Source: Micromonospora carbonacea (GTDB taxonomy: Bacteria > Actinomycetota > Actinomycetes > Mycobacteriales > Micromonosporaceae). From it: a DNA stretch of 64,000 nucleotides. The notes under the pieces are model-generated. The model was given only the letters and a program-made list of their open reading frames with translations, did not search any database and was not told the origin of the DNA. The stretch spans positions 5,376,501-5,440,500 of the forward strand of contig NZ_JACHMZ010000001.1 of assembly GCF_014205165.1 (NCBI RefSeq). The letters are read 5' to 3'. Below, one piece after another: positions 52,103 through 52,456 of the stretch. Within the stretch, counting starts at the first letter, position 1, and every line of letters starts with the position of its first letter. The translations under genes were made by a program, and so were the position numbers.

Positions 52103-52456
52103 TCAGCGGGCGACGGCGTGCGGGGTCGCCGGGTGCGAGGCGCTGTGCGAGGCGATCGCCGCCGCGGCGGCGAAGCCGAACGCGCCGCCGGCCACGGCCG
52201 GCAGGATGGTGACGCTGTCGCCGTCGTTGAGCTTGGCGTCGAGCGCGCCGAGGAAGCGGACGTCCTCGTCGTTGACGTAGACGTTGACGAACCGGTGCAG
52301 CGCGCCGGCGTCGGTGACCAGGCGGGCCCGCAGGCCGCCGTGCCGGGAGTCCAGGTCGGTCAGCAGGTCGCCCAGGGTGTCGCCGGCGCCCTCGACGACC
52401 TTCGCGCCGCCGGTGTACGTGCGCAGGATGGTGGGGATGCGAACCTCGATGGCCAT
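52103..52456 (-). CDS. cysO: CysO sulphur-carrier protein with C-terminal extension
   Basis: 117 residues. Residues 1-91 match the ubiquitin-like sulphur carrier: VRIPTILRTYTGG, GDTLGDLLTDLD, LHRFVNVYVNDEDVRFL, DGDSVTILPAVAGG. In M. tuberculosis the protein ends at this Gly-Gly, whose carboxylate becomes the thiocarboxylate. Here 26 more residues follow (AFGFAAAAAIASHSASHP then ATPHAVAR), so it must be cut before use. Mec, a JAMM peptidase encoded just upstream, is the obvious candidate. ATG 52456 is chosen over an earlier in-frame ATG at 52546, which overlaps mec. Confidence 0.88.
   Translation of the reverse strand: MAIEVRIPTILRTYTGGAKVVEGAGDTLGDLLTDLDSRHGGLRARLVTDAGALHRFVNVYVNDEDVRFLGALDAKLNDGDSVTILPAVAGGAFGFAAAAAIASHSASHPATPHAVAR

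What the first reader, a model, noticed from the sequence alone, without database searches (positions are those of the whole stretch)
52103..52456. CysO has a 26-residue tail after the Gly-Gly, implying proteolytic maturation
Seen: the ubiquitin-like part ends PAVAGG at residues 90-91 and the frame runs on for 26 residues (AFGFAAAAA...AVAR) before a stop 11 bp ahead of cysM. Known: M. tuberculosis CysO ends at Gly-Gly, and the adenylated C-terminus is needed for thiocarboxylate formation. Known: ThiS-like carriers in other systems (QbsE) need a JAMM protease to remove extra residues. Inference: the JAMM protease Mec in the same operon both matures CysO and releases cysteine, a dual role not needed in mycobacteria.
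Basis: partly seen in the sequence, partly recalled or inferred. Interest (0 to 1): 0.75.

Follow-up and report, generated by a model that had tools for sequence, protein, structure and literature searches.

The report
Capped sulfur carrier with conserved tail
A small sulfur-carrying protein used to make cysteine is encoded with an extra tail that probably must be cut off before it can work, the tail's first ten residues are conserved across this bacterial family, and the protease gene next door is the likely cutter, an arrangement already described in shorter form in Streptomyces.

Summary
cysO (minus strand, 52103-52456) runs 26 codons past Gly90-Gly91 and stops 11 bp before cysM. It is no sequencing error: 24 of 24 congeners are capped. 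In the best 120 protein clusters caps are 13-50 residues and begin A-(F/L)-(G/A)-(F/L). The first ten tail codons are under purifying selection (pN/pS 0.22; core 0.30); distal tails drift (0.69-1.27, small sets). Of four ThiS/MoaD-type carriers in this genome only CysO is capped; 49 of 49 other full-length carriers from 21 genus genomes end at Gly-Gly. Mec is the genome's only Prok-JAB match, JAMM motif intact. Most likely CysO is a precursor and Mec cuts Gly91-Ala92, the bond type it hydrolyses when releasing cysteine. Cleavage was not shown here. The principle is published: Streptomyces platensis PtmS2 is capped MV beside a JAMM gene whose deletion abolishes thioacid products (PMC6006322). 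Apparently new: the long cap with a selected motif in Micromonosporaceae, repeated gain and loss of caps in actinomycetes, and single-cysteine caps that encode the pathway's own CysO-Cys intermediate. New variant of a known kind.

The parts
52184..52456 (-). cysO, ubiquitin-like carrier domain, residues 1-91 ending PAVAGG
   Evidence: PF02597 ThiS 65.4 bits over residues 5-91; nearest solved relatives 4n6e_B (deposited as ThiS/MoaD family protein, 90 aa) and 3dwg_C (deposited as 9.5 kDa culture filtrate antigen cfp10A, 93 aa; that this is M. tuberculosis CysO is recalled), both aligned to their last residue, GG
52154..52183 (-). proximal cap, residues 92-101 AFGFAAAAAI: conserved motif directly after the predicted scissile bond Gly91-Ala92
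   Evidence: pN/pS 0.22 over 45 distinct loci; A-(F/L)-(G/A)-(F/L) at its start in 120 of 120 listed protein clusters
52106..52153 (-). distal cap, residues 102-117: variable in sequence and length, apparently close to neutral
   Evidence: pN/pS 0.69-1.27 in four sets of 3-4 equal-length tails
52103..52105 (-). cysO stop codon TGA, overlapping a GAGG ribosome-binding-site-like sequence before cysM
51126..52091 (-). cysM-like PLP-dependent cysteine synthase, 321 aa
   Evidence: PF00291 222.6 bits; TIGR01136 cysKM just over its cut-off, the CysM equivalog models TIGR01138 and NF008735 below theirs, so the name rests on gene order and similarity
52531..53019 (-). mec, JAMM metalloprotease, 162 aa (GTG start); E23, H79, H81, S89, D92 = E...HxHx7SxxD; candidate maturation protease
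   Evidence: PF14464 Prok-JAB 108.6 bits; the only PF14464 match of the genome; no PF01398 match
53074..53568 (-). DUF2017 protein, same strand, upstream neighbour
   Evidence: PF09438 158.6 bits
53571..53861 (-). clpS, Clp adaptor, upstream neighbour
   Evidence: PF02617 79.9 bits; this gene set is operon type 4d of Iyer et al. 2006 (PMC1779556)

Best explanation
CysO of this Micromonospora-type actinomycete is translated as an inactive, capped precursor. The JAMM protease Mec, encoded 74 bp upstream, cuts the Gly91-Ala92 bond, removes the 26-residue cap and exposes Gly-Gly. MoeZR (ThiF plus rhodanese, elsewhere in the genome) then adenylates and thiocarboxylates Gly91, CysM transfers the sulfur to an activated serine, and Mec releases cysteine. 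Mec thus acts twice on one kind of bond: an amide after Gly91 whose next residue is Ala (cap) or Cys (adduct). The proximal AFGFAAAAAI is probably read by the protease, or keeps the arm from E1 and CysM until cleavage; the distal tail is passive. Shown here: the cap, its conservation and selection, its restriction to the Mec-linked carrier within the genus, the single Prok-JAB match. Inferred: cleavage, the cutter, the motif's role.
For: 25 of 25 genus genomes including this one have a capped CysO. Own genome: CysO capped, ThiS, MoaD-like and MoaD end at GG; 46 of 46 further full-length carriers from 20 congeners end at GG. One PF14464 match, no PF01398 match. Mec with HxHx7SxxD lies in the locus in 147 of 150 loci; of the three exceptions L093 and L106 have a Prok-JAB match elsewhere in the genome, and L145 is an uncapped carrier whose genome G059 also has one. 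A CysO match and a Prok-JAB match occur together in 231 of 296 class genomes, CysO alone in 2, Prok-JAB alone in 4 (lists compared). Proximal cap pN/pS 0.22, distal 0.69-1.27. Precedent: deletion of the JAMM gene ptmS1 (and of the E1 gene ptmS4) abolishes thioplatensimycin and thioplatencin in S. platensis, whose carriers PtmS2 and PtmS3 are capped MV and C (PMC6006322, passages); CsRpn11, a JAMM, removes 9 residues exactly after Gly-Gly from the CsUb precursor and also cleaves conjugates (PMC6043591, passages).
Against: No direct evidence here of cleavage, of mature termini, or of which protease. Mec is equally present where CysO ends at GG (36 of 37 uncapped loci), so its presence does not predict a cap. 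In S. platensis deletion of ptmS2 alone did not stop production (the authors suggest redundancy with PtmS3), the carriers were trimmed by cloning for the in vitro assay, and no cleavage by PtmS1 is described in the passages seen. In MoaX of M. tuberculosis, cleavage after Gly82 is by a protease unidentified in that paper (PMC4326299, passages). The AlphaFold model of the cap has pLDDT 41-45 with a short helix at 97-104 and says nothing firm. If Mec tolerated any cap, selection on the first ten residues would need another cause.
Confidence: 0.8

Rival explanations
1. The cap is removed by another protease (for example a Clp, HtrA or carboxypeptidase activity), and Mec only releases cysteine.
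For: MoaX is cut after Gly-Gly by a protease unidentified in that paper (PMC4326299). ClpS lies in the same gene line.
Against: Only the carrier encoded beside Mec is capped: 25 of 25 CysO against 0 of 49 other carriers in the genus. In S. platensis the JAMM gene is needed genetically (PMC6006322). The bond type is the one Mec is reported to cut in CysO-Cys (PMC3227635; that it is an amide is recalled).
Confidence: 0.1
2. The cap is a by-product of gene arrangement: cysO and cysM are translationally coupled, the stop must lie about 11 bp before cysM, and the tail is coding filler tolerated because Mec trims it.
For: Stop-to-start spacing is 5-14 bp in 49 of 51 motif loci although their tails vary from 8 to 45 aa, and the cysO stop overlaps a GAGG before cysM. 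Tails can grow by in-frame tandem duplication: L043 has a perfect 30-bp unit, 3.2 copies. The distal tail looks neutral.
Against: Filler would not keep AFGFAAAAAI: pN/pS 0.22 with most change in third positions. Some uncapped relatives keep similar spacing without a tail (13 of 35 at 5-14 bp, median 7, range -2 to 606).
Confidence: 0.2
3. The region is conserved as RNA or DNA (structure, regulatory site) and not as protein.
For: A G+C-rich self-complementary stretch lies in the Ala codons (sequence).
Against: Predicted folding is no stronger than shuffles (z +0.32); third positions vary most (for example tail codon 7: commonest third base in 0.42 of sequences, first and second in 1.00 and 0.96). 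Covariation was not tested.
Confidence: 0.03
4. The proximal motif is a degron or targeting signal for unprocessed CysO, so that carrier level is set by the ratio of Mec to CysO.
For: The motif is hydrophobic and Ala-rich, is separate from the variable end, and clpS is in the same gene line.
Against: No direct evidence; the extreme C-terminus, where C-degrons are read (recalled), is not conserved; ClpS is described as reading N-termini (PMC1779556, section 16).
Confidence: 0.12

Closest known systems
PtmS2/PtmS1 of Streptomyces platensis (capped carrier plus JAMM protease, Dong et al. 2018, PMC6006322)
   Same: Sulfur carrier clustered with a JAMM protease gene, residues after Gly-Gly; the JAMM gene is genetically needed for thioacid formation. 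Streptomyces CysO loci here with MV caps (L099, L106, L108) have 90 residues to Gly-Gly, as PtmS2 (residues 1-90 in the trimmed clone). That PtmS2 is the CysO ortholog is inferred; its sequence was not compared.
   Different: Cap of 2 residues (MV) or 1 (C, PtmS3) instead of 26; studied for a natural product, not for cysteine.
CysO-CysM-Mec-MoeZR pathway of Mycobacterium tuberculosis
   Same: Same gene set (Iyer 2006 lists it in operon type 4d); Mec hydrolyses the CysO-cysteine adduct (PMC3227635).
   Different: The solved mycobacterial chain (3dwg_C, 93 aa; identity as CysO recalled) ends at Gly-Gly, so no maturation is expected.
QbsE/QbsD (Pseudomonas) and HcyS/HcyD (Wolinella)
   Same: Carrier with extra C-terminal residues removed by a JAMM protease (QbsD named as example in PMC6006322; the rest, and HcyS/HcyD, recalled; papers not held).
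   Different: Other pathways (siderophore, methionine; recalled).
CsUb precursor/CsRpn11 of Caldiarchaeum subterraneum (PMC6043591)
   Same: A JAMM protease cuts a 9-residue cap exactly after Gly-Gly and also acts on conjugates: a dual role of the kind proposed here (passages).
   Different: Ubiquitin conjugation system in an archaeon.
Operon type 4d of Iyer et al. 2006 (PMC1779556)
   Same: ThiS/MoaD, JAB, cysteine synthase, ClpS and a helical protein in actinobacteria; JAB proposed to free the C-terminus of carriers fused to other proteins.
   Different: No cap on the actinobacterial CysO is mentioned in the passages and section read.

Membership tests
CysO-type sulfur carrier (ThiS/MoaD superfamily) | ThiS/MoaD beta-grasp domain ending in Gly-Gly | tested here: met
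   PF02597 65.4 bits, residues 5-91
CysO-type sulfur carrier (ThiS/MoaD superfamily) | Closest solved relatives are CysO proteins | tested here: met
   4n6e_B and 3dwg_C, E 1.9e-32 and 1.1e-29; deposited names are 'ThiS/MoaD family protein' and '9.5 kDa culture filtrate antigen cfp10A', their identity as CysO is recalled
CysO-type sulfur carrier (ThiS/MoaD superfamily) | Encoded with a cysM-like gene and mec | tested here: met
CysO-type sulfur carrier (ThiS/MoaD superfamily) | Gly-Gly is the encoded C-terminus (as in the mycobacterial protein) | tested here: not met
   26 residues follow; so it is filed as a capped variant
CysO-type sulfur carrier (ThiS/MoaD superfamily) | Forms a C-terminal thiocarboxylate | not testable with these tools
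   needs mass spectrometry
SAMP1 (NCBIfam NF041918) | Score over the curated cut-off | tested here: not met
   53.2 bits against 60
Capped carrier matured by a JAMM protease (QbsE/HcyS/PtmS2 type) | Residues after Gly-Gly, conserved in relatives | tested here: met
   24 of 24 congeners; 120 of 120 listed clusters
Capped carrier matured by a JAMM protease (QbsE/HcyS/PtmS2 type) | Cognate JAMM protease encoded beside it | tested here: met
   Mec 52531-53019; only PF14464 match of the genome
Capped carrier matured by a JAMM protease (QbsE/HcyS/PtmS2 type) | The JAMM protease cleaves after Gly-Gly | not testable with these tools
   needs an in vitro assay or deletion
JAMM/MPN+ metalloprotease (Mec) | E...HxHx7SxxD zinc and catalytic residues | tested here: met
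   E23, H79, H81, S89, D92 by sequence; same residues named for CsRpn11 in PMC6043591
Haloarchaeal desampylase (NCBIfam NF041370) | Score over the curated cut-off | tested here: not met
   74.7 bits against 130

The most novel reading that the evidence does not exclude
The ten residues after the cut site (AFGFAAAAAI) are a dedicated, selected recognition element that ties one carrier to one JAMM protease, making CysO supply depend on Mec. Caps in actinomycetes would then be a regulated, fast-evolving layer; in lineages with a single-Cys cap the ribosome itself makes the CysO-cysteine intermediate, so that the protease's cysteine-releasing reaction is also its maturation reaction.
Probability: 0.35. 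Interest if true: 0.6.

Novelty: new variant of a known kind. Interest (0 to 1): 0.45.

Why it matters
If right, the cysteine-releasing protease of a widespread actinobacterial pathway is also its activating protease, so one deletion removes carrier supply and product release together, and assays that use a Gly-Gly-trimmed carrier (as in PMC6006322) skip a step. The GG-Cys caps suggest a simple evolutionary route: cleaving a cap and releasing cysteine are the same reaction. The selected tail motif gives a testable handle on how JAMM proteases read the leaving side of their substrates.

Tried and rejected
RNA element: not supported (z +0.32; third positions most variable; covariation not tested). 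Sequencing error or chance read-through: rejected by congeners. Pfam hits in two cap peptides: none at E up to 1. Test 'genomes without a Prok-JAB protease must have uncapped CysO': too few cases; of 233 genomes with a CysO match only G081 and G168 lacked one; G081's carrier (52% identical) is uncapped, one carrier of G168 is capped but its contig ends inside cysO and the other is uncapped, so it does not discriminate. Co-evolution of the cap with a C-terminal tail of Mec (YxFGxSPxxVxY): strong raw association (tail in 49 of 51 motif, 13 of 13 Cys, 8 of 36 uncapped, 2 of 17 other-long, 0 of 30 short-cap loci), but the tree test of capped against uncapped rows had no power (8 independent pairs, Mec tail differs in 0.6 on average), so nothing beyond shared ancestry is shown. 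AlphaFold of CysO (34 sequences, mean pLDDT 66.6; cap 41-45): uninformative on the cap; no complex could be modelled. Open-frame length alone was not used as evidence (P about 0.72).

Rows dropped before counts: 15 loci with tails of 8 or more that lack a full-length motif (L023 has only AFGFVAAR), and 5 duplicates of 50, 2 of 146 CysM sequences by length; in the carrier count, 6 of 55 non-CysO matches of the 21 genus genomes, because they stop at model position 71 inside frames of about 625-640 aa; L208-L213 are CysO genes of other families, not carriers for that count (caps read: SR, none, none, none, AR, C; the flanks I asked for L212 and L213 were offset).

Full report
What is there. The gene lies on the minus strand, 52103-52456: 117 residues, ThiS-family domain over residues 5-91, Gly90-Gly91, then AFGFAAAAAIASHSASHPATPHAVAR and TGA, 11 bp before the cysM ATG. 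Mec (52531-53019), DUF2017 and ClpS lie upstream on the same strand, the gene set of actinobacterial operon type 4d of Iyer et al. 2006 (PMC1779556; passages and section 16 read). The two closest solved relatives end at Gly-Gly (4n6e_B, 3dwg_C; their identity as CysO proteins is recalled).

It is real. An open run of 26 codons would be likely by chance at this G+C (P about 0.72), so I relied on relatives. All 24 congeners searched are capped, with tails of 8-45 residues. Of 120 protein clusters listed (the best 120 of 8000 matches, so biased to close relatives), 120 are capped, 13-50 residues, median 30; the first four residues are AFGF in 102, ALGF in 8, AFAF in 7, ALAF in 2 and AFGL in 1. 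Among the 80 loci of named genomes (the best 80 of 500 confirmed) the same start appears in Micromonosporaceae such as Actinoplanes, Dactylosporangium, Asanoa, Phytohabitans and Rugosimonospora, and in altered form in Hamadaea (ALGL); it is absent in L057 (Micromonospora sp. HNM0581) and in the Micromonosporaceae MAG L101, which carry other caps.

The cap is specific to the carrier beside Mec. This genome has four ThiS-family matches; ThiS, a MoaD-like protein and MoaD end exactly at Gly-Gly (the three names are inferred from sequence). In the 21 genus genomes there are 76 matches: 21 CysO, 6 that stop at model position 71 inside large frames (left out), and 49 others reaching the model end; all 49 end at Gly-Gly (3, 46). 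The genome has one Prok-JAB match, no PF01398 match, and a ThiF-rhodanese E1 of the MoeZR type.

The first ten tail residues are selected. For 45 distinct sequences (of 50 loci with a full-length motif; the 15 other loci with tails of 8 or more were dropped, listed), pN/pS is 0.22 for tail codons 1-10, 0.30 for the whole core and 0.05 for core codons 82-91. Distal tails, comparable only in four sets of 3-4 equal-length sequences, give 0.69-1.27. Sets are small and not tree-corrected, but the contrast is large. The tail can grow by in-frame duplication: L043 holds a perfect 30-bp repeat, 3.2 copies.

Wider pattern. Of 40 loci picked across families of the class, 21 are capped, one of them a congener. 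On a CysM tree of 144 of 146 sequences, being uncapped needs 20 changes on the best tree, of which well-supported branches force 8; the motif needs 3 (quick tree, 57 of 135 inner branches weak). The first cap residue is A 68, S 16, C 13, M 10, R 3, G 2, T 1 of 113. A CysO match and a Prok-JAB match occur together in 231 of 296 class genomes; CysO alone in 2, Prok-JAB alone in 4 (lists compared).

Mechanism. In the mycobacterial pathway MoeZR thiocarboxylates CysO, CysM adds the serine-derived part, and Mec hydrolyses the CysO-cysteine adduct (PMC3227635, passages). That adduct is an amide between the last glycine and cysteine (chemistry recalled). Cleaving Gly91-Ala92 is the same reaction with alanine in place of cysteine, so a dual role asks for no new chemistry. 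In the 13 loci whose gene ends GG-Cys the translated protein would be identical in covalent structure to the adduct (inference). Genetic precedent: S. platensis PtmS2 and PtmS3 are capped with MV and C, and loss of the JAMM gene ptmS1 or of the E1 gene ptmS4 abolishes thioplatensimycin and thioplatencin; loss of ptmS2 alone does not, which the authors put down to redundancy (PMC6006322, passages). Biochemical precedent: CsRpn11 removes nine residues exactly after Gly-Gly and also cleaves conjugates (PMC6043591, passages).

What remains open. Cleavage itself, and why the first ten tail residues are kept. Recognition by Mec or masking of the arm seems most likely; translational spacing could explain the fixed stop-to-cysM distance (5-14 bp in 49 of 51 motif loci) but not the motif. 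RNA structure is not supported. Against a simple link between Mec and caps stands that Mec is as regular beside uncapped CysO (36 of 37 loci).

Novelty. Capped carriers matured by JAMM proteases are known, including one beside a JAMM gene in Streptomyces. In the library searched (listings, with the named papers opened) I found no report of the Micromonosporaceae cap or its motif; four papers that could hold such remarks (the QbsE, HcyS, original CysO and Amycolatopsis carrier papers, DOIs recalled) were not held, so this is weak evidence of absence.

Noticed in passing
L029, L052, L060, L062, L064, L066, L071, L073, L078, L084, L085, L086, L087: 13 of 150 CysO genes end Gly-Gly-Cys; the 12 with a record title are of Geodermatophilaceae genera (Modestobacter, Geodermatophilus, Blastococcus), L029 is unnamed. 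The encoded protein would equal the CysO-cysteine intermediate of the pathway.
   Followed up: partly
L047, L114, L030: Caps that re-create a terminal AGG: L047 repeats ILPAVAGG, L114 has four units ending in AGG, L030 ends TVAGG. The distal Gly-Gly could itself be activated, or these are assembly or duplication products.
   Followed up: no
window 52531-52620 and related loci: Mec carries a C-terminal tail (YxFGxSPxxVxY) in 72 of 147 loci, in most Micromonosporaceae and Geodermatophilaceae here but not in Actinoplanes L055 or L082; function unknown, association with caps not shown beyond ancestry.
   Followed up: partly
L043:2785-2880: Perfect 30-bp tandem repeat (3.2 copies) inside the cap of Micromonospora arborensis cysO: recent in-frame expansion.
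   Followed up: yes
window 52089-52108: The cysO stop codon overlaps a GAGG sequence before cysM, suggesting translational coupling.
   Followed up: partly
family code f8 (unnamed, same order): The 11 f8 genomes listed without a CysO match are the same 11 listed without a Prok-JAB match, while 13 f8 genomes have both: the pair appears to be lost together.
   Followed up: no
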